Below are positions 1 through 57,656 of a DNA stretch of 57,699 bases, piece by piece (position 1 is the stretch's first letter; each line of letters starts with the position of its first letter). This stretch comes from a virus. The notes under the pieces were generated by a model. It had not been told where the DNA came from. It did no database searches and worked only from the letters and a program-made list of their open reading frames with translations. A program made the translations under genes and the position numbers. The stretch covers positions 1 to 57,699 of IMG/VR virus record IMGVR_UViG_3300047547_000110; one strand, given 5' to 3'.

Positions 1-22
1 GCCTTAGATAGCTGGAAGCTAT

Positions 23-45
23 AAGGGCCCTTCGGGGCCCTTTTT
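23..45 (+). terminator. Rho-independent terminator ending the plus arm
   Basis: An 8-bp stem AAGGGCCC/GGGCCCTT with a TTCG loop runs into a T-tract. Across the circular join it lies just after the VRR-NUC-like gene, so it ends the replication transcript before the next promoter. Confidence 0.9.
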
Positions 46-72
46 CTATTGCCCTAAAAAAAAGTTGCTGGA

Positions 73-106
73 GGGGGCTCCCAACGGTCGAAAACCCCCT
101 TATAAT
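73..106 (+). promoter_or_regulatory. Box promoter 1 (GGGGGCTCCCAA ... TATAAT)
   Basis: GGGGGCTCCCAA is followed by a perfect TATAAT, with 17 bases between CTCCCA and TATAAT. The same box and spacing precede the genes at 1031 and 22830, and a degenerate copy precedes 52646. The bases after the -10 (ATAATCATCCCAT) match the 22.8 kb copy exactly. CTCCCA is a poor sigma70 -35, so an activator or repressor probably binds the G/C box. That is inference. Confidence 0.7.
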
Positions 107-139
107 CATCCCATACCAACCAAACATTGGAGAATAAAC

Positions 140-895
140 ATGACGACCATCGCCAACACCATCCGCGCCGCCCTCGCTGCCGGCAAGACTAACGACCAAG
201 TGCTTGCCGACGTGAAAGCAGCTCACCCCAACGCAAATACCTCCGCTGCATGCGTGTCCTACTATCGCAGCAAGATGAAGAAGGCGGGTACGGCCACCGC
301 GAAGCCCGAGCCGACGGCTATCACCAAAGCGGTTGCTGCAGTGAGTGGCAATGCAGCCTACACGGTCAAGAATGTCAAGACCTTCATCGGTAATGAGGGT
401 CACGGCTTCAACGCCACCCTCTACCGAGATGGCAAGGCGATTGCATTCGTATATGACGACGCTTCGGGTGGGCCCGTTGCCTTCGAGTGGAAGGACCGCG
501 TCGACGGCCTCGTTGAAGTGGCTACGAAGGACTATAAGGGCGAGCCTTGGACTGTCAAAATGACCAATGAAGAGAAGGCCTACCATGCCTTCGTGAGCGC
601 TCTTCCTAAGCATGTGTGCTCCTTCACGGATGACGACGGCAAGCCCGTGGAGATGGATGTCAATATGGAGATGCACGTCTCTGACCTCGTGAACGATGTG
701 CTCACCTTGCGTGACATTGCTCGCATGACTAAGGGCAAGATCGCTTTTGTGAAGACCGATGGCAAGCTCTACACCATCAAGTGCGAGCCCAACGACAAGA
801 ACATCGCCGCCATCAAGGCCAAGCACGCTGGTTGTGTGATTTTGAATGGTATGAGCGACGTCGCGGCCCTCGCTACGATGCGCGCCCTCTCTTGA
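140..895 (+). CDS. Early protein with N-terminal GKTN/WYR-type small domain
   Basis: I do not recognise a named family. I chose the ATG at 140 because GGAGAA lies 7 bases upstream; an in-frame start at 65 would lie inside the promoter. Residues 1-46 form a helical module (GKTNDQVLADVK, then NTSAACVSYYRSKM) also found at the C-terminus of the next gene and the N-terminus of the 52646 gene. The remaining about 200 residues are unlike the other two. The module looks like a small nucleic-acid-binding fold. A strong own promoter suggests early, high expression. 251 aa, soluble. Confidence 0.85.
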   Translation: MTTIANTIRAALAAGKTNDQVLADVKAAHPNANTSAACVSYYRSKMKKAGTATAKPEPTAITKAVAAVSGNAAYTVKNVKTFIGNEGHGFNATLYRDGKAIAFVYDDASGGPVAFEWKDRVDGLVEVATKDYKGEPWTVKMTNEEKAYHAFVSALPKHVCSFTDDDGKPVEMDVNMEMHVSDLVNDVLTLRDIARMTKGKIAFVKTDGKLYTIKCEPNDKNIAAIKAKHAGCVILNGMSDVAALATMRALS

Positions 896-934
896 TGCCA
901 TCATTTACAAAAATAATGGAAAATTGGCGCCCGA

Positions 935-967
935 GGGGGCTCCCAATCCCCACCATTAGTGCATAAT
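935..967 (+). promoter_or_regulatory. Box promoter 2 (GGGGGCTCCCAA ... CATAAT)
   Basis: The box is identical to that at 73-84, with 16 bases from CTCCCA to CATAAT. It lies in the 135-bp gap before the second gene, so that gene has its own promoter even though it follows the first on the same strand. Confidence 0.65.
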
Positions 968-1030
968 GGATTCCATCGACACACGCAATGCGTCGATGCC
1001 CAAACCGAACCAACCTTTTAGGAGAATGAC

Positions 1031-1603
1031 ATGACGAAGCTGACCGAACAATCCAACATCACCGACATCGCTGCAGTGTACAACGAGCTCAAGGGCACCA
1101 ACACGGATGCCAAGACCCTCGGCAAACGATGCAAGGCCAAGCTGCTGGCCCAAATCGACGCCATGCTCGAAGCGCAAGCCGAGAAGAAGGCGGAGGAGCA
1201 GTCCACCAAGGAGGAAGCTCCAAAGGTGGAAGAAGCCCCGAAGCCGAGCGCATTGGGTCATCTCGTGCAGCACATGGCGGAAGTGACTGACAAGACCGAG
1301 GCCGCTCCTACCAAGCCGAAGGCGAAGCGTGAGCCGAAGGCCCCGAAAGAGAAAAAGGAGAAGGGCCCCGTCATCCGCGTCGTCGCTGAGGCTCTGCTGC
1401 TCGAAGTCGTCACCCATGACGAAGACAAGCGTCCGTACGGTCACTCCTACGACGAAATTCTGAATCGCATCCATGCACAATTCGAGGGTGCGAAGACGAC
1501 GGTGGCGTGCCTGCGTTGGTACGCTGTCCACATGCGTGAGCGTGGCGAGAAGGTTCCGAACCGTCCGCGCGCTACCCCTACCACTGTGAAGAAGGAGGCT
1601 TGA
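1031..1603 (+). CDS. Early protein: charged linker plus C-terminal WYR-type small domain
   Basis: 190 aa with an AGGAGAA ribosome site. Residues 1-60 are helical. Residues about 60-115 are a Lys/Glu/Pro-rich linker. Residues about 125-180 carry the module GHSYDEILNRIHAQF ... AKTTVACLRWY ... EKVP shared with the 140 and 52646 genes. The shape (flexible basic linker plus small domain) suggests a nucleic-acid-associated accessory protein; this is not proven. First gene of a run of small genes to 2709. Confidence 0.85.
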   Translation: MTKLTEQSNITDIAAVYNELKGTNTDAKTLGKRCKAKLLAQIDAMLEAQAEKKAEEQSTKEEAPKVEEAPKPSALGHLVQHMAEVTDKTEAAPTKPKAKREPKAPKEKKEKGPVIRVVAEALLLEVVTHDEDKRPYGHSYDEILNRIHAQFEGAKTTVACLRWYAVHMRERGEKVPNRPRATPTTVKKEA

Positions 1604-1608
1604 TCGCC

Positions 1609-1893
1609 ATGCCCACAATGTTGACCTACATTGCGGGCGCCCCTTACTATGAGGGCGCCCGTGAAGCAATCGCCAAACTGAAGGAGGGCGACAAGCTCCT
1701 TCTCGTCCGTGAGCCCAACAACGAATACGACCGCAACGCCGTGGCCGTGCATGGAGTCGATGGGCTCAAGTTGGGCCATGTGCCGAGGGTCGATGCTCCG
1801 ACCATCGCCAAGGTCCTTGACCGCGAATTGCCCTACACGTGCAAGCGTAAGGGCATCTCTTCAACCGCCATTGACATCTCGTGGGAGGCATAA
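1609..1893 (+). CDS. HIRAN-domain protein
   Basis: 94 aa, almost entirely one HIRAN domain: an N-terminal strand, then LLLVREPNNEYDRNAVAV, then LKLGHVPRVDAPTIAKVL. HIRAN domains bind 3' ends of single-stranded DNA and are usually fused to SNF2 helicases (HLTF/Rad5) or nucleases. Here the domain stands alone, and the phage's SNF2-type helicase lies elsewhere (51011), so the two may act in trans; that is inference. I chose ATG 1609 over an in-frame TTG at 1600 because GGAGG is 10 bases upstream of the ATG but only 1 base from the TTG. Confidence 0.85.
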   Translation: MPTMLTYIAGAPYYEGAREAIAKLKEGDKLLLVREPNNEYDRNAVAVHGVDGLKLGHVPRVDAPTIAKVLDRELPYTCKRKGISSTAIDISWEA

Positions 1894-1894
1894 C

Positions 1895-2188
1895 ATGGAC
1901 GACAATCAAGAGGAAGGCTTGACACCTGATGAATTGGTGGCGGTACTCACCGGCCGCTGCGTGCATGAGGTCCAACTCGGCCGACTCATGGGCTTGCTCG
2001 GTCTTGCTGCTGCCAACGCAGGCGGCAAGTTGGAGCTCAAGCTTGATGACCTCAAAGCTCTTGACGGCAAGGGCATTGGAATTGCCTTTGACGAAAAGGC
2101 GGGCACGGCCACGGTTGAGCTCTTGGACGCCCCTAAGGGTGATGACATTAAACCGACGCACTTCGCGGCGTCCAACATGCGCCACTAA
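1895..2188 (+). CDS. Hypothetical acidic protein
   Basis: 97 aa, starting 1 base after the stop of the HIRAN gene, with GGGAGG upstream. It has an acidic N-terminus, a helical middle (LGRLMGLLGLAAANAG) and a strand-rich C-terminal half. I recognise no domain. Tight packing suggests translation together with the HIRAN gene. Confidence 0.75.
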   Translation: MDDNQEEGLTPDELVAVLTGRCVHEVQLGRLMGLLGLAAANAGGKLELKLDDLKALDGKGIGIAFDEKAGTATVELLDAPKGDDIKPTHFAASNMRH

Positions 2189-2205
2189 GGCATAAGGAGA
2201 CTGAG

Positions 2206-2457
2206 ATGCAATACGAGACAAAGACCCGCAGTATGGGCCGGCTGGGCTACGTCGCCATGTTCGTGGCAGTAGCCATGCTCACCTTGTTGGTGCTACACCA
2301 ATTCATCGTGCTGCTGGATCGTCCTGAAGTCCATGTCTCGTACAGCACTGGTCAGTGCGTCGAGGTAGTGGACCATAAGGCCAAGCACGAAGGCAAGCGG
2401 TCAGAATGGTCCTGCGACAAGCTGCCTGAGACCTACGAACGCATCTGGGTGTATTGA
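2206..2457 (+). CDS. Small single-span membrane protein
   Basis: 83 aa, AAGGAG site. Residues about 12-36 are a strong transmembrane helix (YVAMFVAVAMLTLLVLHQF). The C-terminal 45 residues contain two Cys and would face the periplasm in an N-in topology, where they could form a disulfide. Function unknown; small early membrane proteins of phages sometimes act on the host envelope or exclude other phages. Confidence 0.75.
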   Translation: MQYETKTRSMGRLGYVAMFVAVAMLTLLVLHQFIVLLDRPEVHVSYSTGQCVEVVDHKAKHEGKRSEWSCDKLPETYERIWVY

Positions 2458-2526
2458 CGGCTCGACCGGCAAGGCCAGTGTGTCATGATGCCTTCTCGGG
2501 GATGGTCCCCACGGAGGCATTTTATT

Positions 2527-2709
2527 ATGTACGATCAGGAAGGGGATGAGGATGGTTTGGGCTGCGCTCGCGGCCTTATGGTGGCGGTTCCTGTGGGGAT
2601 TTTGATGTGGATCGCGATCATCGGTGCTGTGATGCTGATCCGGGGCTGCCACGACGAGCCTGTGGCGCAATTCAGGTCAGCTCCGGCAGTCGAGGTGCAT
2701 GTCACCTAG
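2527..2709 (+). CDS. Small membrane protein
   Basis: 60 aa. The ATG at 2527 has GGAGG 9 bases upstream; a longer reading from 2485 would cross a GGGG-loop-CCCC hairpin in the leader. An acidic N-terminus is followed by one hydrophobic helix (about residues 17-40) and a short tail. No known family. Last plus-strand gene before the convergent lysis genes. Confidence 0.6.
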   Translation: MYDQEGDEDGLGCARGLMVAVPVGILMWIAIIGAVMLIRGCHDEPVAQFRSAPAVEVHVT

Positions 2710-2760
2710 GCGCTGAGCCGGGCTACTCGGCCCGAGAGCTAAAACATAGACCTGAAGTAA

Positions 2761-2787
2761 GAAAAAGACACCGCCAGGCGGCGGTGT
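2761..2787 (-). terminator. Terminator of the late (minus) transcript
   Basis: An 8-bp perfect stem ACACCGCC/GGCGGTGT with a 4-base loop is followed on the minus strand by CTTTTTC. It lies just past the last lysis-region gene and faces the plus-strand genes. Confidence 0.85.
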
Positions 2788-2845
2788 TAAAGGCTCAGGC
2801 GGGCGTGAAGGAGAGGAACCCAACCGCCTGAGGCCGCGGGGCTTG

Positions 2846-3127
2846 TCACTTGCCTACGAACTCCTTGATGCCAACCCAAAGGGCGGCAAGCATACCGCTG
2901 ACGAGAATGCCCATGACGGTGAGCAGGCCTTTCGACTTGATGCTCTCGGTCGTGTTGCGCCACTCGCGGAGGTGCTGGAAGTCCTTTTGAACTTCAATGG
3001 GATCATCGACTTTCACCCCGAGCATGAGGAACGTCTCACGGACGGCCTCACGGATCAAGGCACGAGCCTCTTCGGGGGTCAGGTTCTGGAGCTGCTGCTC
3101 GGGGCCAGGTCGGTTGTTTTCACTCAC
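2846..3127 (-). CDS. Membrane-anchored protein of the lysis region
   Basis: 93 aa from a GTG start with GGGAGGGAAC upstream. A longer reading from GTG 3244, overlapping the Rz1 stop, is possible but adds a low-complexity Arg-rich N-terminus. A soluble helical part (LTPEEARALIREAVRETF ... VDDPIEVQKDFQHLREW) is followed by one C-terminal transmembrane helix at about residues 66-88. This type of protein is common beside phage lysis or tail genes and may be a holin-associated or pinholin-like component; its role is unproven. Confidence 0.75.
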   Translation of the reverse strand: MSENNRPGPEQQLQNLTPEEARALIREAVRETFLMLGVKVDDPIEVQKDFQHLREWRNTTESIKSKGLLTVMGILVSGMLAALWVGIKEFVGK

Positions 3128-3240
3128 TTCGTTCCCTCCCGGGCAGAATGGTAGTTCAGGGCTATCGCTGCGCCGGCGTCCAAAGACGGCTTCAGCAACG
3201 GCAGCCCGCACTGGGTTGCATTGTGTTCTCCGATCATCAT

Positions 3241-3621
3241 TCACTTCCCGCCCTTCCCGTCGCCTTCAGGCACGGGCTGCTGCCGTGTCCGGCGGTAGAA
3301 GTCGAGCTGATAGCTGGCTTCACGAGCCCAGCGTACCATCTCAGACATGTTGCGAGAAAGTGCCTCGTATCCGCGGGCAGGCAAGGCGAACAACGCCTCG
3401 CCCTCGACTTCAACGACCTGCCAGCGGACCGTCTCGAGCTTAACCGGCTCAGGAGCCGGGAGCACGGGCAGCGGGGGCTGCTTGGTCTCCGTTGGAGGTT
3501 GGAGCTTGGGTGGAGTGCTCGAGCAGGCGGATAACCCGATCAGAGCCATCGTTAACCCGGCGCTCAATAAGACCCGGCTTACGCTTGGCGAGCGCGCCGA
3601 GGTCATGCTTGGATAGGACAT
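3241..3621 (-). CDS. Outer-membrane spanin lipoprotein (Rz1-like)
   Basis: 126 aa. An N-terminal signal with a lipobox (LIGLSAC|SSTPP) is followed by a Pro-rich stretch (PPLPVLPAPEP), the classic o-spanin pattern, so Cys should be lipidated and the protein sorted to the outer membrane. It starts inside the Rz-like gene in another frame and runs past its end, which is typical spanin architecture. It is longer than most Rz1 proteins (60-100 aa) because of a charged C-terminal extension. It acts with the i-spanin to fuse inner and outer membranes at lysis. Confidence 0.85.
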   Translation of the reverse strand: MSYPSMTSARSPSVSRVLLSAGLTMALIGLSACSSTPPKLQPPTETKQPPLPVLPAPEPVKLETVRWQVVEVEGEALFALPARGYEALSRNMSEMVRWAREASYQLDFYRRTRQQPVPEGDGKGGK

Positions 3622-3910
3622 CCTTAAGCTCCCTCGAGTATGCGCCAGCCTCACGCTGGGCGGTTGAAAAGTCCTCCAGCGCCTTAGCTTGCACCTTTGC
3701 CGCCGAGTCCCATGCGTCGATGGACTTCTCGAAGGCGTCGGCCCGTGCTTTCTCGCGGGAGACATCTTCCGTCAAAGTCGCAACCTGCCCGGTGAGCTGA
3801 GCATTGGCCTCGACTAAGCCAGAGTAATGGCGATATGATAACGCAACTGCCGTTGCCAAAGCAACCCCAATTGCGATGCCAACGTATGCTTTCCAGCTCA
3901 AACCGAACAT
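3449..3910 (-). CDS. Inner-membrane spanin (Rz-like)
   Basis: 153 aa, AAGGAGAAG site. An N-terminal transmembrane anchor (AYVGIAIGVALATAVALSY) is followed by a long coiled coil (residues about 30-100) reaching into the periplasm. About half the gene overlaps the Rz1-like frame. The spanin pair completes lysis after the holin and endolysin act. Confidence 0.88.
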   Translation of the reverse strand: MFGLSWKAYVGIAIGVALATAVALSYRHYSGLVEANAQLTGQVATLTEDVSREKARADAFEKSIDAWDSAAKVQAKALEDFSTAQREAGAYSRELKDVLSKHDLGALAKRKPGLIERRVNDGSDRVIRLLEHSTQAPTSNGDQAAPAARAPGS

Positions 3911-3920
3911 GATCTTCTCC

Positions 3921-4421
3921 TTAAGGGTAGATGCTGGAGGGCAGCTCGAAATGAGGCCCATCCAGGAATGCCTTCTTGCCTGCAGCCTTGCGGCGAGTGA
4001 CATAGCCGGCGACTTCGTCTTCCATGTCTCCAGCGAGGTCGGCCAGCGTCTTGTCCCAAACCCCGCCCCAACGGATGGGGACCTGGAGCTCAAGACTTGC
4101 CCGGCGCACAGCGTCCGCCACGCGATAGCAGAGATTCCAGTCCCACCGCAGTTCGGCCTTGCCATCACCATCGAAGTCGATCAGTGGCACCAAGTCAACC
4201 GCGTGGCCGAGGCCGTCAGAACCAGGGAGATGGCGGGAGTCCATGGTCTGGCTTGCTCCCTGTGCGACCAGCTTGGCTTGGCGAGCGCGAGTGCGCAAGC
4301 CTTCATAGACCTGGAAGTCGACCGATGTGACCTGGATGGCACGTTCTACCACGCGAATAAGGTCAGGGTGAACGCCTGCCAGGCTTTGACGGGACTTAGT
4401 CCCTAGTACGAAAGTAGTCAT
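3921..4421 (-). CDS. Endolysin, M15-family peptidoglycan peptidase
   Basis: 166 aa, soluble, no signal peptide, so release depends on a holin. VYEGLRTRARQAKL, SRHLPGSDGLGHAVDLVP and DGPHFEL match the zinc-binding HxxxxxxD and C-terminal H motifs of M15 (VanY / L-Ala-D-Glu) peptidases used as phage endolysins. The start overlaps the upstream membrane gene by ATGA, so the two are probably translationally coupled. Adjacent spanins support the role. Confidence 0.92.
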   Translation of the reverse strand: MTTFVLGTKSRQSLAGVHPDLIRVVERAIQVTSVDFQVYEGLRTRARQAKLVAQGASQTMDSRHLPGSDGLGHAVDLVPLIDFDGDGKAELRWDWNLCYRVADAVRRASLELQVPIRWGGVWDKTLADLAGDMEDEVAGYVTRRKAAGKKAFLDGPHFELPSSIYP

Positions 4422-4738
4422 GGCTCATCCTCTATTTTTGCTGATGCCCCAGGGCCTGGGGCGGGCTTACTCGGCCGAGCTGCAGCCATTGCAGCAGGGC
4501 CCTTGATCTTTGCTATGCTGACGTCTTCCCAGGTGGCTCCGAACACGTACGAGCCAACTATGCCGATGAGAGTCAAGAAGGCCATGGTCACGGCGGTGTC
4601 TGCCGGCCCGGTGGCCAATCCTTTCCACAGGATATAGGCGATGGTCCACATGCAGAAAGCCGCCACCGCAAACATGAAGCGGCGGCGAATCTTCCAGCTC
4701 GACGCCGGGATGGGGTTGCGCAGTTTGTCATCATCCAT
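4418..4738 (-). CDS. Putative holin (two transmembrane segments)
   Basis: 106 aa, GGAGAAG site, TGATG overlap with the tail gene upstream and ATGA overlap with the endolysin downstream. Two hydrophobic helices (about residues 22-43 and 50-70) flank a short loop, then comes a Pro/Ala-rich soluble tail. Topology and position directly before the endolysin argue for a class II holin. The second helix motif (IGIVGSYVFGATWED) is common in phage membrane proteins of unproven role, so holin is inferred from position. Confidence 0.7.
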   Translation of the reverse strand: MDDDKLRNPIPASSWKIRRRFMFAVAAFCMWTIAYILWKGLATGPADTAVTMAFLTLIGIVGSYVFGATWEDVSIAKIKGPAAMAAARPSKPAPGPGASAKIEDEP

Positions 4739-7700
4739 CACGACGTCTTCTCCATGCGCTTGTTCTCGTTTGCGCCCCACGTCAAGCCGGTCTCAAACCA
4801 CACAGGCACCCAGGTTGTGCCGTCTGTGCTGGCTTCAATCTCCACGTCGGTCGGCATCTTGGTTGCATCGCCGGTCGGGTTGCGAAGCTCCACGGCGGTC
4901 ACATCTACAGCTGAGCCCATGTCGTATGCTACCCAGGCCGTGCCGTTCGCGATCTGAGCGGCTGTGCCAGTCCAGAAAGTCGCCGGGTCATTGTCGTCCA
5001 CGTTCGCAAGGCCTGAGCCAGCGCCTTGGGACTTCGTGTAGCCAGTATGCTTCGTCGCGCCATTAAAGAACGCCAGCTCTGCATAGGTGACATCCGTTCC
5101 AATCGAAGCCGCTGTGCGTAGGCGCCAGTAGCGACGTGTGCCGGTGTTGTAGTTGCGGATCGTGGACTTGGTCCAGGTGGTGCCATTCGAGGAGTACCAG
5201 GGCTCATTGGCGCCACCGGATGCCGTAGGGCGCGACCCTACAACATTCGTGCCATTGGCGCGCAAAGCCGTAGGGTAATTTGCCAGTGCAGTACGTGTCC
5301 AGGTAGCTCCGTCGTCCGTGCTGACATTCAATCCGCCAGGACCTGTTGCGACGTAGCCGCTCGCACCAAAGGCCTCGACCTCTTGGAAGTCATTGCCAGT
5401 CGAGGCCCCGCTGACCATTGCCACTTCGCTGACCAGGGTGAAGTTCAGCCCGTCAGTTGAGCGCAGGACGAGTTCCTTCATCGTGCCGTCACCTACGTTG
5501 CGGCGACCCATGGCAGTGATGACAAAGCTTGTCGCGCTGCGGGCTGCAACACCATACGGGCGGAAGAACTGCCATCCACCAGTCACGGCAGCCGGATAGT
5601 CGTAGTAGCCAGAACCCGGGCACACAGACCAGCTCAGCAGGTTGGTGGAACGCATCAGGAGCACACTATCTGCCTGGAATTGTGAGCCCTTGCCAGAGTG
5701 GAAGGCATACCAGTAGGACCCTACCTTGAAGAGCTCCATCCACATGCCCGTGTACCACGTCCAGCCCGAGCCGATACTCGGCAGAGTCATGCTGCCGAGG
5801 TTGCTCCAGCTTAGACCGTCAGTGGACGTCTGCACCGTCTTGTCGTTCATGATGCGGACAAAGCGGGAATTGGAAGCGTCCCAAGCAATGCACAACGGCA
5901 AGGCGCCGGTGATGTTTGAGGTGGTCCACGGCCGAGGCGGATAAGAGCGGGCGAAGTCGGCCACCTGTGTGTTGTACCAAGGGGCAGACGAACCCACCGA
6001 AGCATAGTATTTCGGGAAGGACGCATACCGATTGGAGCCACGTGCCATGCCAGGCTTCTGACGGCTGAACATGTTGCCGCCGTCCAGGGTGCCCATGTAC
6101 TCGAACGTCACACCGCCATCAGTCGACCCATAGAAACGAGTCACCGCGTATTGGCTTGCTGCCGGGCCGGCATAGGCTTGGCTTGCTGCTAGGAAGCGCG
6201 TGCCGTCATAGAGGTAGTTCTCCATGGCGACCGATGAGCCAAAGCCTGGACCGATCGGCTGGCCAGTTTCATCGACCCGCACGAACTCGTCATATTGGCG
6301 CAACAGGGATTCAACGCCTGCCCGCACTGAGTAGACCTCTGCACGGATATTGGCCACGCTGCCAAGGTCCAGGGTAGTGAAGGATGCGCTTGTGCCCGTC
6401 AGGCCGCTGAGTGTCTTAATCACAGCGCTCGTGGACGAGTTGAGCACCCGGGCGACATAGGTTGTGCCCGCCTCGGGTCCGACGTTGGCAGCGTTCTGGT
6501 CAACCAGAGTCTGGGCAGTCTGCTGGATGCGATCACGGTGTGCCCAGGCCAGGGACACGCCATCATAGCCACTGATTTGCGCCGGGTAGACGTTGCCATT
6601 GACCGTGAACTTGCCAGGCGGGTACGGACGCCACTGGCGGCCTGACGTCGCATTGACTGCCAGGGTGTCAGTTGCGCCGGAGCCCAGTGCCAAGGTGCCT
6701 TGGCCCGTGGTGGTCAGCATACGAACGCTGACCGACTCACCCAGGGCGTACTCATTGGGCAGCTCGACGACCGAAGGATTGTCCCCGCTACCGAGGAAGA
6801 TCAGACGGGTGTTGGAGGCGATCGGCACGGGAACCGTATCCAGCATGCCACGCTTGACCGTGACAAGGGTGTCAGTGATAGACACCACTTGCACCAGTTC
6901 GCGGGTGTTGATAGCTCCAGTGCCCACTGCAGCAACGTCTCCGACGGCAACCAGGTCGAGGTCAAGCCCGCCGGTGATTGCGAGCGCGGTGTCAGCCTGG
7001 CCGTAAGCGGCCGAGATGACCGCCGTCGGGCAGAAGTTCGCCACGGCCTGCTGTTGATAGCCTGCACCCTCATCGACGTAAATCTGGGCGCTGTACGCAG
7101 AGCCACCGGGGTTGGTGCCGCCGATCATCATGTAGGAAGCCGTCTGCGGGAGAGCAGCTGCCGCCGAGTCGCCGAGGGTGCGAGCGATCAGGTAGTAAGG
7201 CACCTCTGTCAGCAGACGGAAAGGCACAGGCGTCGGAGCGCCAATCGGATTAGTCCATTCACTAGGCGGTGGTGGCGAGTAGATTGCACTCGACAGAGCG
7301 AACACGTCTTCCACGACAGACAGCTTGATGAGGTTGCTCGTCAGCTCACCGAGCTCGATATTGGTCACCCGAAACACGACCTGCGAGATACCGTACTCAG
7401 CCCAGGCAAAGCGAAAGACGTCACCGATATTCAGGCTTGCAGCCTTGCGTGTGACGTACAAAGTAGCGGAAGCCAAAGGAGTGGACAAGGCCTTCAGGTC
7501 ACGAGCTGCCGCCCGCGTGGCGATGGTTCCGTTGGTGAAGCCAGGATACTGAGAAGTCGTGCCGACTGTGGCGCCCTGACTGGCGGCAAGAGCAATGTCC
7601 TGCACAGTCACAGAGTTGTTCTTGCCAGTCGACTTGTCCCAGAAAACCACGCTCACCTGGTTGGTGAGTTCGGCCACGGTTGAGCGCTTGAAGTCCGTCA

Positions 7701-8445
7701 CCCGCTCCACGACCGCCTCGTCGAGAAGCATCAGTGACGGGATGTCATACCCGCCACGGGCAAGCTTGATGACAAACTGGCCCGTGGTCCGGTCAGTGTA
7801 CAGAGACCCGTCGATGTGCCGCAGCACGATCGCCAGGAAGTCAGAAAGCTGCTGCTGCTTATCCCAAAGGATGGACATGCCCATGCCTTCTGCGTGCAGA
7901 ATATCCGCTGCAGCCGTGAAGGAGGTGTTGTCCACGTCGGCTTCAGGGTAGCCCATGCCCCAGTCGGGATCGGTGAGCACTTCGCGCAAGATGTGCGCCG
8001 GGTTCATGTCACCACCGACGTCAGCCTTTGCCGCATACCATTGAGCGATGCCGTCCTGGCGGAGCTGGATGCGCGTGGCACGAATAGCCCAGCGCTTCAA
8101 GTAGGGGTTGTTGCCCAAGTAGCACTGGCGGAATACCAGGCCGAGCACGCGGCGGAAAGCGGGGATGGCTGCGCCAAGCTGGCTCTGCAGGTAGGCGTTA
8201 CGCCCCTGCGACGGCAAGCCCATCTCAATGTCGATCGTGCCTGACACGCCGCCCTCGCGCTCATCACCGCCGAACAACATCGGGGCGTTGACCACCACGG
8301 CTCCGCCGGTGCTCGTGCCACTCCAGGCCGCTTTGCCGTCCACGCTGAACCGAGTCACCTTGTCGACTGGCCCATGGCACATGATGGCGTGCATGCCTAG
8401 ATAGTATTTGTACCCTACGGTCTGCGCCTTGCTACTTCCGCCCAT
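4738..8445 (-). CDS. Tail tip / host-recognition protein with discoidin-like C-terminus
   Basis: 1235 aa, the largest tail gene. I chose ATG 8445 with GAGGAGG rather than an upstream in-frame start. The N-terminal about 450 residues resemble the central tail-tip (gpJ-like) hub proteins of siphophages. The middle region (about 700-1050) has several Asp-box-like repeats (STDGLSWS, STDGLNFT, STDDGATWT) typical of BNR beta-propellers. The last about 130 residues fit an F5/8 type C (discoidin) carbohydrate-binding fold. Together these suggest glycan or lipopolysaccharide binding at the tail tip, but the receptor cannot be named from sequence. Confidence 0.88.
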   Translation of the reverse strand: MGGSSKAQTVGYKYYLGMHAIMCHGPVDKVTRFSVDGKAAWSGTSTGGAVVVNAPMLFGGDEREGGVSGTIDIEMGLPSQGRNAYLQSQLGAAIPAFRRVLGLVFRQCYLGNNPYLKRWAIRATRIQLRQDGIAQWYAAKADVGGDMNPAHILREVLTDPDWGMGYPEADVDNTSFTAAADILHAEGMGMSILWDKQQQLSDFLAIVLRHIDGSLYTDRTTGQFVIKLARGGYDIPSLMLLDEAVVERVTDFKRSTVAELTNQVSVVFWDKSTGKNNSVTVQDIALAASQGATVGTTSQYPGFTNGTIATRAAARDLKALSTPLASATLYVTRKAASLNIGDVFRFAWAEYGISQVVFRVTNIELGELTSNLIKLSVVEDVFALSSAIYSPPPPSEWTNPIGAPTPVPFRLLTEVPYYLIARTLGDSAAAALPQTASYMMIGGTNPGGSAYSAQIYVDEGAGYQQQAVANFCPTAVISAAYGQADTALAITGGLDLDLVAVGDVAAVGTGAINTRELVQVVSITDTLVTVKRGMLDTVPVPIASNTRLIFLGSGDNPSVVELPNEYALGESVSVRMLTTTGQGTLALGSGATDTLAVNATSGRQWRPYPPGKFTVNGNVYPAQISGYDGVSLAWAHRDRIQQTAQTLVDQNAANVGPEAGTTYVARVLNSSTSAVIKTLSGLTGTSASFTTLDLGSVANIRAEVYSVRAGVESLLRQYDEFVRVDETGQPIGPGFGSSVAMENYLYDGTRFLAASQAYAGPAASQYAVTRFYGSTDGGVTFEYMGTLDGGNMFSRQKPGMARGSNRYASFPKYYASVGSSAPWYNTQVADFARSYPPRPWTTSNITGALPLCIAWDASNSRFVRIMNDKTVQTSTDGLSWSNLGSMTLPSIGSGWTWYTGMWMELFKVGSYWYAFHSGKGSQFQADSVLLMRSTNLLSWSVCPGSGYYDYPAAVTGGWQFFRPYGVAARSATSFVITAMGRRNVGDGTMKELVLRSTDGLNFTLVSEVAMVSGASTGNDFQEVEAFGASGYVATGPGGLNVSTDDGATWTRTALANYPTALRANGTNVVGSRPTASGGANEPWYSSNGTTWTKSTIRNYNTGTRRYWRLRTAASIGTDVTYAELAFFNGATKHTGYTKSQGAGSGLANVDDNDPATFWTGTAAQIANGTAWVAYDMGSAVDVTAVELRNPTGDATKMPTDVEIEASTDGTTWVPVWFETGLTWGANENKRMEKTS

Positions 8446-22264: not shown

Positions 22265-22524
22265 GTTGTTTCTCCTAACAGAGGTTGAGGGTTTGCTTGG
22301 TTTGGTGCCGGATCGCCCGACGATTCGACCCCGGGCCAGGCGTCACGCCTCTGCTGGGTCAGCGAGCGCGGTTCGCGGAGGTCATCCGCGCTCGCACGCT
22401 ATGGTTCGAAACTTTGCCATGACGGCACCAGCTCGTAACCCCATAAACCAGCACCAGCACAGCAGTATCTGAGCTATCTGAGTCCCTCAAAGTGCCAGGT
22501 CCGTACGTAGAAAGCTATGCGCAC

Positions 22525-22584
22525 CAAGGACTTAGAGCCATTTTGGACCGTACGAGCCTTGGACTCGGTGTTGTACCAGGAAAA
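22525..22584 (+). repeat. 60-bp conserved element, copy A
   Basis: By my count 47 of 60 bases match, without gaps, the reverse complement of 37316-37375. The first 16 and last 15 bases are identical (core GTTGTACCAGGAAAA at the end). CTTAGA motifs and an AT-rich block follow in the same order in both copies, so the homologous block is longer than 60 bp. Confidence 0.85.
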
Positions 22585-22759
22585 CACACGGCCACCGATT
22601 CAGGGCAAGGTCAGCCACGGCGTAACCGAGGTCTAGAAGCCTTAGATGGCCTAGAAGTCCTTATCCGGCTTAGAGTTACAGTCACTTAGAGACCTATATA
22701 AGGTTTAGATTACCTTAGATTAAAGGATAGATAAAATAAATAGAAAATAATTGCTTGAA

Positions 22760-22792
22760 GGGGCTCCCAAGCTAGGAGAACCCTGCCATAAT
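22760..22792 (+). promoter_or_regulatory. Box promoter 3 (GGGGCTCCCAA ... CATAAT)
   Basis: CTCCCA, 17 bases, CATAAT, then ATCATCCCAT as in box promoter 1. It drives the plus cassette embedded in the head genes and so ties it to the genes near position 1. Confidence 0.68.
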
Positions 22793-22829
22793 CATCCCAT
22801 CAACACGAAACACTGACTTGGAGCTCAAC

Positions 22830-23030
22830 ATGAACCGCCCTTTCGCCAACACCGCAGCCGCTGACTACGACGCCACTGTGGCAGCTGTTGAACTGCAGCT
22901 CGCCAAGCTGAAGGGCAAGATTGAAGCCCACAAGGCGAAGGCCAAGACCGACCCCAAGAATTGGGGCTATTCGGGTGACCTTCGCAAGGTTGAGTCCGAC
23001 CTCGCTGACCTTCTCGCCTTCCTCAACTAA
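22830..23030 (+). CDS. Small helical protein of the plus cassette
   Basis: 66 aa from ATG 22830 with GGAG upstream. Mostly one long amphipathic helix (YDATVAAVELQLAKLKGKIE), Lys-rich middle, then a short second helix. Could form a helical hairpin. No known family. First gene after box promoter 3. Confidence 0.75.
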   Translation: MNRPFANTAAADYDATVAAVELQLAKLKGKIEAHKAKAKTDPKNWGYSGDLRKVESDLADLLAFLN

Positions 23031-23041
23031 GGAGCCACATC

Positions 23042-23545
23042 ATGACCGCCAAGAAGACCGCCTTTGCGAAGTCCATTGTCACGCAGCTCGAGGATGGTGC
23101 CATTGTGGCCATCGGGGACTGCTGTGTCATGCTTCGACTGTCTGAGACCGAAACCTATTCCAACCTCCATGAGGTGGTGGAAGGTAAGCTCATCCCGCAA
23201 TATACGGAGCTGCTCGACTCGGCTCTTGGGTTTGCTCAAGCCTTCAAGCCCACTGCTGCATTCAACAAGGACCTAGTGGCGCATGCCTTCCTTTGCCAAC
23301 TCGTGGCCGATATTGGCGAGGAGAACTTCGCCGAAGTGGTTCGCAAGCAGAAGGAGACACCGATTCAAGGCGTCTGCTATTCTCATGACTTCTGTGACGC
23401 CAACATGACCATGGACGCAGCGATGAAGTCTCTCGGCATCGATCCAATGCCCGAGGACGAAGATGGCATGCCCGACCGCGTGGTCGACCTTTGGAATGCT
23501 GCATGGGACCACGCCAAGACTCGCATGGAGGCTATGACCCTCTAA
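23042..23545 (+). CDS. Hypothetical protein of the plus cassette
   Basis: 167 aa, AAGGAG site 11 bp after the previous stop. Mostly helical, acidic, with five Cys, including a CVMLR and a CYSHDFC cluster that could hold a metal or disulfide. No family recognised. Adjacent genes share the transcript. Confidence 0.78.
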   Translation: MTAKKTAFAKSIVTQLEDGAIVAIGDCCVMLRLSETETYSNLHEVVEGKLIPQYTELLDSALGFAQAFKPTAAFNKDLVAHAFLCQLVADIGEENFAEVVRKQKETPIQGVCYSHDFCDANMTMDAAMKSLGIDPMPEDEDGMPDRVVDLWNAAWDHAKTRMEAMTL

Positions 23546-23613
23546 ACAACGGCATCAGATGCACCTAGCTGGGTGCATGATTACTTCACCGACCTACCTA
23601 TGGGAGAATACCG

Positions 23614-24498
23614 ATGGATGACTTCTTTCCGTCCGACGACTACCTCGACGCTTTTGCCGAGGACGTTGGGCTCAACTCGAAGCCGAGCCGCTTCCGTGAA
23701 CCGCCGCACAAGATCGCGGTGAAACGTGGATGGAGCACTATGGTGGGCAATTCCGCGAACAAGCAAGTGCCTCGCGGTGGAGCGCCGTGGACGGGCAAGG
23801 AAGACGCCGACCTGCTCAAGTCTGCTAAGCGCACGACGGACCTCGGCCGTATTGCCAAGGCCCACGGTCGGACTGAGACTGCCATCGCTTGTCGCCTCGA
23901 GCATCTCGGGTATGACAAGGGCGCTCTCATTGCCATGGACTTTGCCGACGTCGAGCTCCGCGTCGTCTCCCACATGATCGCAAACAACACGAAAGGAACC
24001 AACAAGATGAAAATGACTGCCAACCGACTGATCCTGCTGCTCGGCGCGTACCGCGGAAGCCTCGAGGCTGAGACTCGCACCGGAACCACCGCCCCGGACC
24101 TTTGCTTCCTCACCGTGGAAGGGCTTCTCGCTCAAGACGGTGTGGGCGGACACTTCATCACGGATGAAGGCCGTGTGCTTGTAGAGGGTCTGCTGGGCCG
24201 CTCGTCCTCGGCTTCCGGCCGTGATGGCGCCAGCACGTCTTGGAATGGCCCGCGCAACACCAGCATGCTCGATGACCAGCGCTTCTACATGGTTGCCTCG
24301 GGTGACTGCATGAAGGGCGGACCGCACGGACGTCCTCAGCTCAAAAAGCCAGCAATCACTGTGCAGAGCTCGGGCCGCGATGCTGAGAAGGAGGCCAAGC
24401 GCCTCGCCGATCTGAGCCGTGGCGAGAAGTTCTTCGTCCTGCAGGCTGTCTCGGTGCATGAGGTCCAGCCGCAGCCTGCCACGTCCCGCCGTCTGTGA
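23614..24498 (+). CDS. SANT/Myb-like protein with a polymerase motif-A-like segment
   Basis: 294 aa with a GGGAG site. Residues about 57-100 form a Myb/SANT-like helix-turn-helix (APWTGKEDADLLKSAK ... RTETAIACRLEHLGY). Residues 108-119 (MDFADVELRVVS) closely resemble motif A of family A DNA polymerases (D-Y-S-x-I-E-L-R), yet no fingers or motif C follows. From 24007 the text looks like a second gene: GAAAGGAACC lies before ATG AAA ATG. So this may be a DNA-binding protein fused to, or read through into, a separate about 163-aa protein. Confidence 0.7.
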   Translation: MDDFFPSDDYLDAFAEDVGLNSKPSRFREPPHKIAVKRGWSTMVGNSANKQVPRGGAPWTGKEDADLLKSAKRTTDLGRIAKAHGRTETAIACRLEHLGYDKGALIAMDFADVELRVVSHMIANNTKGTNKMKMTANRLILLLGAYRGSLEAETRTGTTAPDLCFLTVEGLLAQDGVGGHFITDEGRVLVEGLLGRSSSASGRDGASTSWNGPRNTSMLDDQRFYMVASGDCMKGGPHGRPQLKKPAITVQSSGRDAEKEAKRLADLSRGEKFFVLQAVSVHEVQPQPATSRRL

Positions 24499-25457: not shown

Positions 25458-26651
25458 TCAGTCGTCCGTCCCACGAAGCCGGTCTAGCAGTTCGCGGGCA
25501 TCGTCGTCAAGCCGAGTACGCAGCTGGTCCAGGTTGTACTGGCGCCCGCTAGCATCCACAAACTTGTCGAGTGACACGCCACCGTCACGGAACAAGCGGG
25601 CACGCGTAGGGCCCAGGACCTCGTCCTGGAACTTCGCAGGCTGGCGCTTGATCCAGTCCTGGTAGGTGACATTGCTTGGGGTCAAGCCGATGTTCTCCGC
25701 AGCCCAGGCGTCACGCCGAGCCTTGACTTGCGCCCGACGATCGGCAGCCGACATGCGGGACCACTCTTTCGCGCCTGCCTCTTCACGAGCTTCCTGGGTG
25801 AAGTCCAGCTCACGCTTGCGGCGGGTACGACCGTCACGGACTGTGGGCCGATCACCCACAATCTCCTCACCGGCCAGAATAGGGACCACCGTGGAGCGGC
25901 AGTTTGGATGCGCTGGCGGGCGAGGCCCTTTGTCAATTGGGTAGACTTCACCGTCACGAGAACGGCAGACAGCCGAGGTGCGGCCGTCCAAGGTAGCTAC
26001 CCAACGGACTCCGCTGATGATGTCAGCATTGGCCTCCCAGGTCGCTTGGCGGGCGCCAGTCGAGACGTGGTTCGCCGCTGTACGCACAACAGTCTCGGCG
26101 TCACGCTTGGTGATAGCCAGAACCCCGTCAGAGTAGTTCGCGGCCTTGGTCCCACGGATGCGGCGCACGATCTGGTCGTTGGTCTCGCCCTGCAGGATGC
26201 CCAGACGCAGCTGTTGCTCGATGCGCTGAGAGTCTGCAGCAGCCAGACGATCCCACCAGCCTTGCAACGGAATGCCGTTGATAGGCGACGCCACGACAGC
26301 CCTCAGCGTAGCAGGCGCTACGGTGTTGAAGGCAATCTCGACAGGCACAGCCGCAGCCATGGCATTAACCTCCCAAGTGGCCTCGACTTGAGACAACCCA
26401 TTGAGGTCAGGGCGCACGTCGGCATCGACCGCAGCAATAGCTGCTGCCCGCAGCCTCCGAATCTCGATCAGCATCGCGTTTAGGCGCGCTTCTTGGAACT
26501 CGGTGAGGTTCTCCTGGAGCATCGCGACAAGCTCACGATCCGAAGCCTCCAGGAGCTTGACTGCATCAGCTGCCATGCGGTTAGAGAACCGCAAGACAGC
26601 GATCTGATGGCGGACCGTGGCGTCGAGGAGCTCCTCGTTCGCGGTAGGCAT
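25458..26651 (-). CDS. Minor head protein, MuF / SPP1 gp7-like
   Basis: 397 aa. The C-terminal-half motif WVATLDGRTSAVCRSRDGEV with PRPPAHPNCRSTVVP is the MuF head-morphogenesis signature (CxxxDG / HPNCR). The N-terminal half is helical. Such proteins sit near the portal and can be ejected with DNA. Start overlaps the portal stop (TGATG). A TCGGCCACGG repeat lies 2 bases past the stop. Confidence 0.9.
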   Translation of the reverse strand: MPTANEELLDATVRHQIAVLRFSNRMAADAVKLLEASDRELVAMLQENLTEFQEARLNAMLIEIRRLRAAAIAAVDADVRPDLNGLSQVEATWEVNAMAAAVPVEIAFNTVAPATLRAVVASPINGIPLQGWWDRLAAADSQRIEQQLRLGILQGETNDQIVRRIRGTKAANYSDGVLAITKRDAETVVRTAANHVSTGARQATWEANADIISGVRWVATLDGRTSAVCRSRDGEVYPIDKGPRPPAHPNCRSTVVPILAGEEIVGDRPTVRDGRTRRKRELDFTQEAREEAGAKEWSRMSAADRRAQVKARRDAWAAENIGLTPSNVTYQDWIKRQPAKFQDEVLGPTRARLFRDGGVSLDKFVDASGRQYNLDQLRTRLDDDARELLDRLRGTDD

Positions 26652-28210
26652 CAGTCAGCTCCAGGATTCAGTGCCGGGTCAACCGGTGGGGCGTTGGGAT
26701 TGGCAGGCGGGTTGTTTGGGTCAACCGGTGGGGCGTTGGGATCGGCAGGCGGGTTGTTCGGGTCGGCAGGAGGCGTCTGGGTGCCATTGCCATTGCCAAA
26801 CATGTCGCCCATCGAGCTCGTAGCTTCTTCCTTCAGCTGCTCGGCGTCTTCGTCTTCGTCGAAGTCGTCGGACAGCACTTGGCGGGACTTCATCTCCTTC
26901 AGGAAGGCCTTGCGAGACAGGTCGCGCTGAGCACGCATCTTCAGCAGAGCATCCAGCTCAGCGGAATCAGCTTCCGTCAAGTCCACATCGGTGTTAACCG
27001 TGGCCGAACCTCCAGCCTCAAGACCGAGCCAGTCGGCGGTGAACTGCATGGCCTGCTCGAGGCAGTCCTGGAAGTCCCTCACAGTCGCAGCCAGGTAGGA
27101 CGACGATTCAGCCGAGTCCAGGGCGCGCCCGGTAGCTGTCTCGTCGCCAGGACGCTGACGCATGTACTCCGCGCCGTAGGTGGCCATCTGATTCTCCAAA
27201 GACTGGAGGTCATTGGCACCTGCGGTGATGGCCGCGCCGGTGTGCTCGACGTAGTACCACTTGCCTTCGGGGGCTTCAGTGGTGAGGAAGTTGTTGGGGC
27301 CGATGTTGACCTTCTGGTCTGCCGCCACACCGGACGCAGCCAGGATGGGGAAGCGGGACACAGTGAGAACGTTGCGCTGATCGCTGGCAGACTGCCAGTG
27401 CGCAACGTTGAGGAAGGCCAGGTCAGTGAGGGGCGGCTTGCACTCCATCAGACCCGAGCGCTTGCCTGCATAGAAGGTAACCAGCGGAATGTAGTCCAGC
27501 GAGGTGGTGCCTTCGGATTCGATGTGCCACTCGTCACCTTTTTCATTGGGTGCCCAGACTTCCCACATGCCGGGTTCGAGCACGCGGACGCGGACGACCT
27601 CGACTTCCTCCCAGCCGACACGCTCGACAGTCTTCTCAAGGATGCGGATGTGCGTGAGAACCTCCTGGCCAAGCACCACCGCCGAGTAGGCAGCAATGAG
27701 GCATTCAGGCTTGACGTGCACCCAGTACGGGCGCAAGCCATCAGCACGGTCGTCAGCCAGGGTGCGGGGACGATCGTCACCCTCAGCATCAGTCTTGGCT
27801 TCAGGTGTAGGATGCTCCACGAGGACATGGGAGAAGCCTTTGGCCCAGGCTTCCCGGAACCAGGAGCGCGAGAAGGCCTGCAGGTTGTTGCCCTGCATGT
27901 CAATGTCTTCGGCGTAGTCCACAATCTGAGCGGGCACGTCTTCGCCAAGCACAACCGCTTCACGAAAGGGCTTGCCTGCAAGGGTGTCCAGCGTCTGCTC
28001 AGTCATGTTGAGCAGCGTGGCACGCGACTTGCGGGCTTCGTAGTTCTTGTTGGATTCATTGTCATACTGCGGGAGGAATTCATCCCCAGCAGCTCGCATT
28101 GCTTCCGTGCCAGCAAGCAATACGTCGATCATGCGCCAGCGCGGCGTCATGCGGAGGTAAGCCGACGACGGGGTCGCCACTGTCGGCTTCTTATTGGGTG
28201 TATCTGCCAT
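26651..28210 (-). CDS. Portal protein (DUF4055-like)
   Basis: 519 aa. SRATLLNMTEQTLDTLAGKPF, KGFSHVLVEHP and the crown/stem region fit DUF4055-type portals. The C-terminal 40 residues are a Pro/Asn/Asp tandem repeat (ADPNAPPVDPNNPP) that probably extends flexibly into the head. Forms the dodecameric DNA gate and docks terminase. Confidence 0.92.
   Translation of the reverse strand: MADTPNKKPTVATPSSAYLRMTPRWRMIDVLLAGTEAMRAAGDEFLPQYDNESNKNYEARKSRATLLNMTEQTLDTLAGKPFREAVVLGEDVPAQIVDYAEDIDMQGNNLQAFSRSWFREAWAKGFSHVLVEHPTPEAKTDAEGDDRPRTLADDRADGLRPYWVHVKPECLIAAYSAVVLGQEVLTHIRILEKTVERVGWEEVEVVRVRVLEPGMWEVWAPNEKGDEWHIESEGTTSLDYIPLVTFYAGKRSGLMECKPPLTDLAFLNVAHWQSASDQRNVLTVSRFPILAASGVAADQKVNIGPNNFLTTEAPEGKWYYVEHTGAAITAGANDLQSLENQMATYGAEYMRQRPGDETATGRALDSAESSSYLAATVRDFQDCLEQAMQFTADWLGLEAGGSATVNTDVDLTEADSAELDALLKMRAQRDLSRKAFLKEMKSRQVLSDDFDEDEDAEQLKEEATSSMGDMFGNGNGTQTPPADPNNPPADPNAPPVDPNNPPANPNAPPVDPALNPGAD
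26676..26759. repeat. Two 42-bp tandem repeats in the portal gene
   Basis: Two near-identical 42-bp units (about two base differences) encode the Pro-rich portal C-terminus. Prone to length change between isolates. Confidence 0.85.
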
Positions 28211-28286
28211 GAGCGGCTCCTCGGTCGGCGGTGTACGTAGATGACCGCGATGGTACCTCGTAAACCGCCGATTCGGGAGCCAGCAA

Positions 28287-31504: not shown

Positions 31505-31507
31505 AGT

Positions 31508-36999: not shown

Positions 37000-37315
37000 A
37001 AGGGCCTCACCCAACTGGGCCCTCGCGCGGCCACCGGAATCGACCACGGATGCTCCGTACGAGGGGAAACTCCCAATCGGCAGCCCTCAGAACAGCCCAT
37101 GGCGAGCGTCACGACCGAATCCATCAAAAGGCCTAGATTGCTATTTTTACTGGAAAGTTGTTTTTATAGGATTAGATTTATCTAAACCTTTATTATTTAA
37201 GGTCTAGATTAAAATAACTAATAAAAACAATAACTTATGATGCAATCTAAGGCATCTAAGCTGTCTAAGCCGAGTAGCCGTGCCGGAAAATCACCACTGA
37301 GAAAAGGGTATATTA

Positions 37316-37375
37316 TTTTCCTGGTACAACATCGAGCTCAAGGTCCAGATTGCTCAGATTGGCTCTAAGTCCTTG
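37316..37375 (-). repeat. 60-bp conserved element, copy B (inverted)
   Basis: Reverse complement of 22525-22584 at about 47 of 60 positions. On its own strand it is followed by CTTAGA motifs and AT-rich DNA, as in copy A, and it points toward the terminase operon. Confidence 0.85.
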
Positions 37376-37440
37376 ATTTACATAGCAAAAGCAGTACGAG
37401 CCTGGCCTTATAAGGGATCTAGATAGCTTAGATCGTCGCC

Positions 37441-40036: not shown

Positions 40037-40252
40037 GGGCGTGCTCCTTCTCAGTATGTGATCGGTTGGGCCTTGGGTGGGCCGGGACTGTCATCTTACC
40101 CGGACGTAATGCAATGCGAAACCGTCGGTTGACCCATCTAGGCCTTATAAGGCTCAGATGCCCTAGACCATTGTCCCGTGAACGTGGGTCCGCAGTGCAT
40201 GGCCTCGGTGTTACGATGAACATCCCTAAACCGCTCAACGAAGGAGAGCAAG
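40037..40252. other. Divergent control region
   Basis: 216 bp between the minus (PrimPol) and plus (replication) arms. Holds CCAACCGATCAC on the minus strand before the RHH gene, and CCTTATAAGG and CTAGA/CTCAGA motifs like those in the two large gaps. Both promoters should lie here; I cannot place the start points firmly. Confidence 0.6.
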
Positions 40253-53220: not shown

Positions 53221-54222
53221 ATGATTCGACTTGCTCGCCTCTACTTTGTGCGTGGAGACATGCCCAGCCATACCCGTACTCGATTCGAGATTAAAGACCC
53301 ACCCTGCTCAGGCTATGGCCACGTAGCCATCATCCCGGGTGAGAAACGATCGACCCTGCTAAGCCCCTTCTCGCTGCAAGCTTGGCAGGTCAGCAATTCA
53401 TGCGATGAGATGCGTAGCGCTGAGTATGTGGAATGCTCACCCGAAAAGCTTGCCGGGTTCATCTATAAGGCTTGGGATGAGTGCATAAAGCTAGGGTTCC
53501 AGCGAGACTTTGGCGTCGCCGCAATGGTGCTGACCGAGCTCGGCCAGCCGGTGCCCAAGTATATACCGCCTCCGGTGGATGAATCCAAGAAGGACGAGTC
53601 CAAGCGAGGAGGCAAGCCCATCAATGAAGAGGCGCTGCGGCCGTGCAAGCCGACCAGCAAGCGCGGTGAAGTGGCTGCGTTCTTCATGCAGGACGATCCT
53701 CAGTCCCTACACGAGGCCATGGCTCGTCTCAGTCTCACCCGGTCGGGTGTGCTGTCTCACCTGTTCACTCTCAACAAGGACCACGGCGTCGGCTATGAGC
53801 TGGTCAGCGACTGTGCCCGCCTTTTGGTGCCTGAAGGTTTTGACTTGTTCGCTTGGGTAGAACCCGAGCGGGCTCCCAAAGCCGAGAAGCCTGTGCGCAC
53901 CAACGAGGACGGCACGGTCTACGAGCCCAAGAAAAGGACAAGCGGCAAGGCCGTCATTCCCGAGGCGCTCAAGCCGATCCCTGAGCCAGGCAAGCGCGCG
54001 GTGGTGGCTCGGTTCTTCGTTGATGGCTTCCACGACGTCGCCGAGGTCTGCACCAAGCTTGACTTGGACCGTTCGGCTGTGTTGTCTCACCTATTCACGA
54101 TCAACAAGGAGAATGGCCTAGGCTACGAACTGAGCGAGGATGGCAAGTGCGCTCGCTTGATCGTGCCTGAGGGGCATGTCGTCTTTGGCCCCAAGATTCC
54201 GCGAGCTAAGAAGGGTGAATGA
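53221..54222 (+). CDS. Protein with two tandem winged-helix-like repeats
   Basis: 333 aa, AGGAG site. Residues about 138-206 and 248-318 are clearly duplicated: SGVLSHLFTLNKDHGVGYEL versus SAVLSHLFTINKENGLGYEL, each ending LLVPEG/LIVPEG. Each has the helix-turn-helix then beta-wing order of a winged helix. The N-terminal 110 residues are an unrelated alpha/beta domain. Likely DNA-binding; target unknown. Confidence 0.82.
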   Translation: MIRLARLYFVRGDMPSHTRTRFEIKDPPCSGYGHVAIIPGEKRSTLLSPFSLQAWQVSNSCDEMRSAEYVECSPEKLAGFIYKAWDECIKLGFQRDFGVAAMVLTELGQPVPKYIPPPVDESKKDESKRGGKPINEEALRPCKPTSKRGEVAAFFMQDDPQSLHEAMARLSLTRSGVLSHLFTLNKDHGVGYELVSDCARLLVPEGFDLFAWVEPERAPKAEKPVRTNEDGTVYEPKKRTSGKAVIPEALKPIPEPGKRAVVARFFVDGFHDVAEVCTKLDLDRSAVLSHLFTINKENGLGYELSEDGKCARLIVPEGHVVFGPKIPRAKKGE

Positions 54223-57527: not shown

Positions 57528-57538
57528 CTGGAAGCTAT

Positions 57539-57563: not shown

Positions 57564-57656
57564 ATTGCCCTAAAAAAAAAGTTGCTGGAGGGGGCTCCCA
57601 ACGGTCGAAAACCCCCTTATAATCATCCCATACCAACCAAACATTGGAGAATAAAC

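What the first reader, a model, noticed from the sequence alone, without database searches (positions are those of the whole stretch)
73..967. Recurrent GGGGCTCCCAA box 16-17 bases before TATAAT/CATAAT: a phage-specific promoter class
Boxes at 73-84, 935-946 and 22760-22770 are near-identical and set at fixed spacing before a -10 hexamer; a weaker copy lies at 52531-52561. CTCCCA is a poor -35, so a phage or host activator probably reads the G/C box. Three of the four genes served carry the same small domain, and the fourth heads the antisense cassette, so this looks like one regulon.
Basis: partly seen in the sequence, partly recalled or inferred. Interest (0 to 1): 0.72.

Follow-up and report, generated by a model that had tools for sequence, protein, structure and literature searches.

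The report
Phage promoters with replaced minus-35 box
A family of phages that infect Pseudomonas, Xanthomonas and related bacteria starts several of its genes from promoters in which the usual "-35" signal is replaced by one conserved GC-rich word (GGGGCTCCC) at a fixed distance from a normal "-10" signal, so some still unknown protein, probably made by the phage, must help the host's RNA polymerase read them.

Summary
GGGGCTCCC(AA) lies at 74, 936 and 22760, with TATAAT/CATAAT starting 17-18 bases after the 9-mer. A fourth exact copy at 57591 is only the contig's terminal duplication.

The box alone occurs at chance frequency. Paired with a -10 at that spacing it is far from chance: in 17 genomes, 46 of 72 boxes have a -10 at gap 17-18, against 7 at all other gaps from 0 to 59. 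All 16 Bradleyvirinae relatives checked carry it. YuA, of the sister subfamily, does not.

52 non-redundant sites share an A/T tract at about -56 to -48, the box at -39 to -31 where a -35 should be, TATAAT, and CA at the likely start. The genes served differ and can be swapped behind a conserved promoter, so the small domain is not the rule.

That subclass also precedes the replication operon and the portal gene, so GGCTCC with an 18-20 base spacer is the shared core.

Most likely these are sigma70 promoters whose -35 was replaced by the site of a phage-encoded activator. YuA has an analogous set with a different box, annotated as needing a phage cofactor. The box's reader is unidentified.

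The parts
57..66 (+). A-rich tract upstream of box A (about -56 to -48), UP-element-like
   Evidence: column statistics of 52 aligned sites; direct reading
74..82 (+). class I box A, GGGGCTCCC (positions -39 to -31)
   Evidence: conserved in relatives that keep this locus
101..106 (+). -10 TATAAT of promoter A; likely start A at 113
140..895 (+). gene behind promoter A; N-terminal small domain; an unrelated gene stands directly behind the kept promoter in AXL1, YB23 and DoCa10
936..944 (+). class I box B, GGGGCTCCC
962..967 (+). -10 CATAAT of promoter B (gap 17)
1031..1603 (+). gene behind promoter B; small domain at its C-terminal end
22760..22768 (+). class I box C, GGGGCTCCC, between the major capsid gene and the antisense cassette
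22787..22792 (+). -10 CATAAT of promoter C
22827..24498 (+). antisense cassette behind promoter C (22827-23030, 23042-23545, 23614-24498); its counterpart in DLP4/AXL1 is called the YbiA operon
   Evidence: conserved in 17 of 17 genomes
40186..40191 (+). degenerate class II box GGGTCC, -10 TACGAT at 40212-40217, head of the rightward replication operon (40253-40786); GGCTCC or GGCTTC in most relatives
28250..28281 (-). class II-like promoter GGCTCC-N20-TACCAT before the portal gene (26651-28210, minus strand)
   Evidence: hit in 15 of 16 relatives, with GGCTCC, GGCTTC or GGCTCA
57591..57623 (+). copy of promoter A in the terminal duplication; not an independent site
53221..54222 (+). candidate box reader (phrog_11422, unknown function): two tandem repeats, 51% identical, with weak winged-helix Pfam matches; candidate only

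Best explanation
These are real phage promoters for host RNA polymerase with sigma70. Shown from sequence: a consensus -10, an A/T-rich upstream tract (class I), a conserved CA at the expected start, and a GGGGCTCCC or GGCTCC word at -39 to -31 in place of a -35. Inferred: a phage-encoded DNA-binding protein occupies that word and either contacts sigma region 4 or alpha, or takes over the sigma region 4 position, so that one reader drives several separate phage operons, namely accessory cassettes, the replication operon and the portal gene. The tandem winged-helix-like protein at 53221 is a candidate reader, with low confidence.
For: Box plus -10 is present in the window and all 16 Bradleyvirinae relatives, and in about 18 related metagenomic virus contigs; none of 74 reversed-box control stretches was a relative sharing phage synteny. 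Spacing is fixed: 46 cases at gap 17-18 against 7 at all other gaps. The GGCTCC core with an 18-20 spacer is conserved before 5 separate genes; 250 other 6-mers gave 0-1 loci, apart from near-variants of the core (3) and one word (2); wrong gaps gave 0. The best -35 match at correct spacing is CTCCCA, 3 of 6, without TTG, in nearly every site, so the sigma region 4 contact is not selected. The genes served are unrelated. Hosts span five genera of gamma- and betaproteobacteria, while the strict composite (GGGGCTCCC-N18-TATAAT-N5-CA) has 7 hits in 84,980 cellular genomes, none in host genera, which favours a phage-encoded reader. YuA, same family, has five repeats of the same layout annotated 'putative sigma70 promoter requiring phage-encoded cofactor'.
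Against: No transcription data exist here. No reader has been identified. The protein at 53221 is only one of about ten non-structural genes conserved wherever the box is. A perfect -10 plus an UP-like tract might fire without a factor. A repressor site in the same place would look similar.
Confidence: 0.57

Rival explanations
1. The box is an operator for a phage repressor (or dual regulator). Host polymerase reads the -10 and UP tract alone, and the repressor shuts the promoters off, for example in the lysogenic or late state.
For: The core GGG-CT-CCC is an imperfect palindrome overlapping the promoter. DLP4 is reported as temperate (PMC6469090). A perfect TATAAT and A-tract could support basal activity.
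Against: Phage operators over a promoter normally leave a usable -35 (general knowledge), and none is kept here. No TGn extended -10 is seen. Class II sites have weaker -10s (TACACT, TACCAT), which would need help rather than repression. A survey of the family found no genuine repressor or integrase (PMC11946847).
Confidence: 0.17
2. A host transcription factor or alternative sigma factor reads the box.
For: Phages of other lineages are known to borrow host factors: CtrA controls gene expression in alphaproteobacterial phages (PMC9437464, title and abstract).
Against: The box is invariant over Pseudomonas, Xanthomonas, Stenotrophomonas, Janthinobacterium and Variovorax phages, yet the strict composite is not found in such hosts. 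The -10 is plain sigma70 type.
Confidence: 0.2
3. The boxes are inherited duplicates or a mobile cassette end without regulatory function.
For: Promoters sit at the heads of cassettes whose genes get swapped.
Against: Only promoter-relevant columns are conserved, spacing is fixed, and flanks and genes are unrelated. The box is kept at 58-90% protein divergence.
Confidence: 0.04

Closest known systems
YuA repeated promoters (Pseudomonas phage YuA, NC_010116, Rabinowitzvirinae)
   Same: Same phage family. Five repeats with a box around -36, a TATACT-type -10, CA near the start, and an A-tract upstream of at least two; annotated as 'putative sigma70 promoter requiring phage-encoded cofactor'.
   Different: The box is CTTTACTTCTTCGG, which contains a fair -35 (TTTACT), not GGGGCTCCC. 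The served genes differ. YuA lacks the GGCTCC class.
T4 middle promoters (MotA box with AsiA, sigma appropriation)
   Same: An activator box replaces the -35 in front of a good sigma70 -10 (PMC7403470).
   Different: Different box sequence and position (here -39 to -31). No MotA or AsiA relative was named by the profile searches of the ten proteins scanned; the mechanism is not shown.
Promoters annotated before the 'YbiA operon' in DLP4 and AXL1
   Same: These are class I promoters: one predicted promoter 58-65 bp before the cassette in each paper (PMC6469090, PMC9206674).
   Different: Predicted individually. The passages found in those papers do not describe the shared box, fixed spacing, second subclass or family-wide set.
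CtrA-controlled phage promoters in alphaproteobacteria (PMC9437464)
   Same: A phage promoter set read through a dedicated factor; the paper mentions YuA-like phages.
   Different: The factor there is a host regulator; a different site (general knowledge).

Membership tests
sigma70-type promoter | -10 hexamer close to TATAAT with a start about 7 nt downstream | tested here: met
   TATAAT columns 0.89-0.99; C 0.87 and A 0.85 at -1/+1; the start itself is inferred, not mapped
sigma70-type promoter | recognisable -35 (TTGACA) at 16-18 nt | tested here: not met
   CTCCCA/GCTCCC at that position in nearly all 52 sites; at most 3 of 6 matches
activator-replaced -35 promoter (MotA/AsiA-like) | conserved box replacing the -35 at fixed spacing | tested here: met
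activator-replaced -35 promoter (MotA/AsiA-like) | phage-encoded MotA-like activator and AsiA-like sigma-binding protein | tested here: inconclusive
activator-replaced -35 promoter (MotA/AsiA-like) | transcription depends on the activator | not testable with these tools
   needs experiment
YuA cofactor promoters | box CTTTACTTCTTCGG before TATACT | tested here: not met
   one YuA site scores 16.5 bits against 32-76 for the sites of the Bradleyvirinae genomes

The most novel reading that the evidence does not exclude
A whole phage subfamily has moved its accessory, replication and portal promoters to a private -35 substitute (GGCTCC core) read by its own tandem winged-helix protein (the phrog_11422 family at 53221), a reader unrelated to MotA/AsiA, and the sister subfamily (YuA) has drifted to a different box, giving a natural series of co-evolving promoter and reader pairs.
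Probability: 0.2. Interest if true: 0.72.

Novelty: new variant of a known kind. Interest (0 to 1): 0.53.

Why it matters
It gives a family-wide promoter map for Bradleyvirinae (phages of interest for therapy and crop protection), shows which cassettes are switched together and kept under one promoter while genes are swapped behind it, and makes a clean test possible of how phages redirect host RNA polymerase outside the T4 model. It also provides a search word for annotating promoters in dozens of genomes.

Tried and rejected
Box as a host promoter word: genome scan, 7 scattered hits in 84,980 genomes, none in host genera. Box as a general viral word: 94 against 74 control stretches, the synteny-sharing relatives all in this phage lineage. 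RNA or hairpin element: it lies upstream of the likely start and the inverted repeat around it is not conserved. Sigma54 promoters like YuA's late ones: no convincing -24/-12 site in the window or four relatives; the scan also gave none in YuA, so its sensitivity is low. Possible class II site at 2459: its -10 overlaps the start codon, judged chance. Contig L148/G004 has two boxes with -10s but no shared protein; left open. The YuA genome paper is not in the library; its record annotation was used instead.

Full report
What the window is. It is an IMG/VR virus record of 57,699 bases with a duplicated end of about 183 bases (57516-57699 = 1-183), so probably a circular or circularly permuted genome of about 57.5 kb. 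Its closest record is Pseudomonas phage PaMx74: about 80% DNA identity over 1-8000 and 96% protein identity in the large terminase. It is therefore a Pamexvirus-like member of the lineage whose better classified members are filed under Bradleyvirinae, Mesyanzhinovviridae.

Observation. The exact word GGGGCTCCCAA is at 74, 936, 22760 and 57591; the last is the end duplicate. With two mismatches the word is no more frequent than in shuffles (21 against 24), so the word alone means little. The pair of box and -10 does mean something. In the window, GGGGCTCCC and GGGCTCCCA are the only 9-mers found three times at 16-18 bases before a -10-like word. A matrix trained on the relatives without the window scores the three sites at 64, 54 and 34 bits, while the best score in 20 shuffled windows was 12.

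Relatives. Sixteen annotated phages were fetched and searched. Every one carries box plus -10. Over the 17 genomes, [AG]GGGCTCCC occurs 72 times; 46 have a -10 at gap 17 or 18, and only 7 at any other gap from 0 to 59. A scan of 2.9 million viral contigs for GGGCTCCC-N17,18-TATAAT gave 94 stretches; the same search with the box written backwards gave 74. The excess is explained by contigs that share this phage's genes, and no control stretch was such a relative (three control stretches had isolated single-protein matches). The strict composite GGGGCTCCC-N18-TATAAT-N5-CA gave 7 scattered hits in 84,980 cellular genomes, none in the host genera.

Anatomy. Fifty-two non-redundant sites share, with the -10 at -12 to -7: an A/T tract at about -56 to -48, where the alpha C-terminal domains bind UP elements (general knowledge); (A)GGGGCTCCC at -39 to -31; often CCCC just before the -10; TATAAT; and a CA step at the expected start. 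In promoters A, B and C of the window the CA lies 39 bases after the first box base even though the -10 of B is one base nearer to the box. No usable -35 exists: the best hexamer at correct spacing is CTCCCA, 3 of 6.

The second subclass. The GGCTCC core starts 25 bases before the -10 in both subclasses. The same arrangement lies before the gene at 40253, head of the rightward replication operon, and before the portal gene (28281, minus strand). As a test, the core with an 18-20 spacer was sought before each gene family. GGCTCC is conserved in at least half of the genomes before five genes; of 250 other 6-mers of similar GC content, 209 gave none and 35 gave one. The five that gave three are near-variants of the same core, and one gave two. 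Wrong spacings gave none.

What is served. Class I promoters precede many unrelated, mostly small genes. At locus A an unrelated gene stands directly behind the kept promoter in AXL1, YB23 and DoCa10. The shared small domain of 140, 1031 and 52646 is real (cross-matching PHROG families), but it does not define the set. The antisense cassette between capsid and scaffold is called the YbiA operon in DLP4 and AXL1, where a single predicted promoter had been noted (PMC6469090, PMC9206674).

How it probably works. Steps shown: the promoter layout, its fixed geometry, its restriction to this lineage, and the absence of a -35. Step inferred: a protein reads the box and lets host Esigma70 start. A phage-encoded reader is favoured because the box is invariant over five host genera while the composite is not found in hosts, and because YuA, in the sister subfamily, carries five repeats of the same layout with another box, annotated as sigma70 promoters needing a phage-encoded cofactor. 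The best described case of a box replacing a -35 is the T4 MotA box with AsiA (PMC7403470). No relative of MotA or AsiA was named among the proteins scanned here, so only the working principle is compared, not membership.

Candidate reader. Genes kept in all box-bearing complete genomes and absent from YuA include those at 52646, 53221, 1031, 140, 43129 and 47530 and replication enzymes. The 53221 protein is attractive: two repeats 51% identical to each other with an invariant VLSHLF-type helix and weak winged-helix matches (PF0610-like_N E = 0.0014, below its cut-off). It remains a guess. The cassette protein 23614 is excluded, being absent or only a fragment in divergent genomes that have boxes.

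Limits. There are no expression data. The sites are related by descent, so the count of independent loci (at least five gene families in the core genomes, and about ten more unrelated genes in relatives) is the safer measure than the count of sites. The literature library holds no report of this box in phages that I could find, but most subscription journals are missing.

Noticed in passing
window 22531-22720, 37251-37433, 40142-40167 and 3-9: Clusters of CTTAGA / TCTAAG / CCTAGA words in the A/T-rich intergenic regions before the capsid/cassette and terminase/primase divergences; most CTTAGA words of the window lie in these regions. Possibly iterons or an operator set.
   Followed up: partly
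window 22514-22584 and 37316-37386: A 71-base inverted repeat, 76% complementary, shared by these two intergenic regions.
   Followed up: no
window 1-183 and 57516-57699: Terminal duplication with one extra A in a poly-A run: the contig is a closed circle or a circularly permuted genome.
   Followed up: yes
YuA NC_010116 7722, 10500, 22639, 29058, 31098: Five repeats CTTTACTTCTTCGG-N7-CAC-TATACT annotated as needing a phage cofactor; the one at 29058 has GGGG before the box and scores 16.5 bits with the Bradleyvirinae model, hinting at common origin.
   Followed up: partly
L110/L135 (virus contig G003, 23 kb): Four class I promoters in one 23-kb contig, two of them 365 bases apart, each before a different small gene.
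   Followed up: partly
L148 (virus contig G004, 16 kb): Two box plus TATAAT sites in a 70% GC contig that shares no protein with this phage lineage; chance or a distant user of the box.
   Followed up: no
window 52580-52610 and relatives: A conserved GCCGGGC...GCCCGATCGGGCGGC stretch directly after the class II start before gene 52646, kept in most of the relatives; may be a leader structure.
   Followed up: no
window 30545-33322: Ribonucleotide reductase genes whose close relatives are in the Xanthomonas/Stenotrophomonas/Variovorax phages, not in PaMx74 or the other Pseudomonas phages checked: mosaic genome.
   Followed up: no
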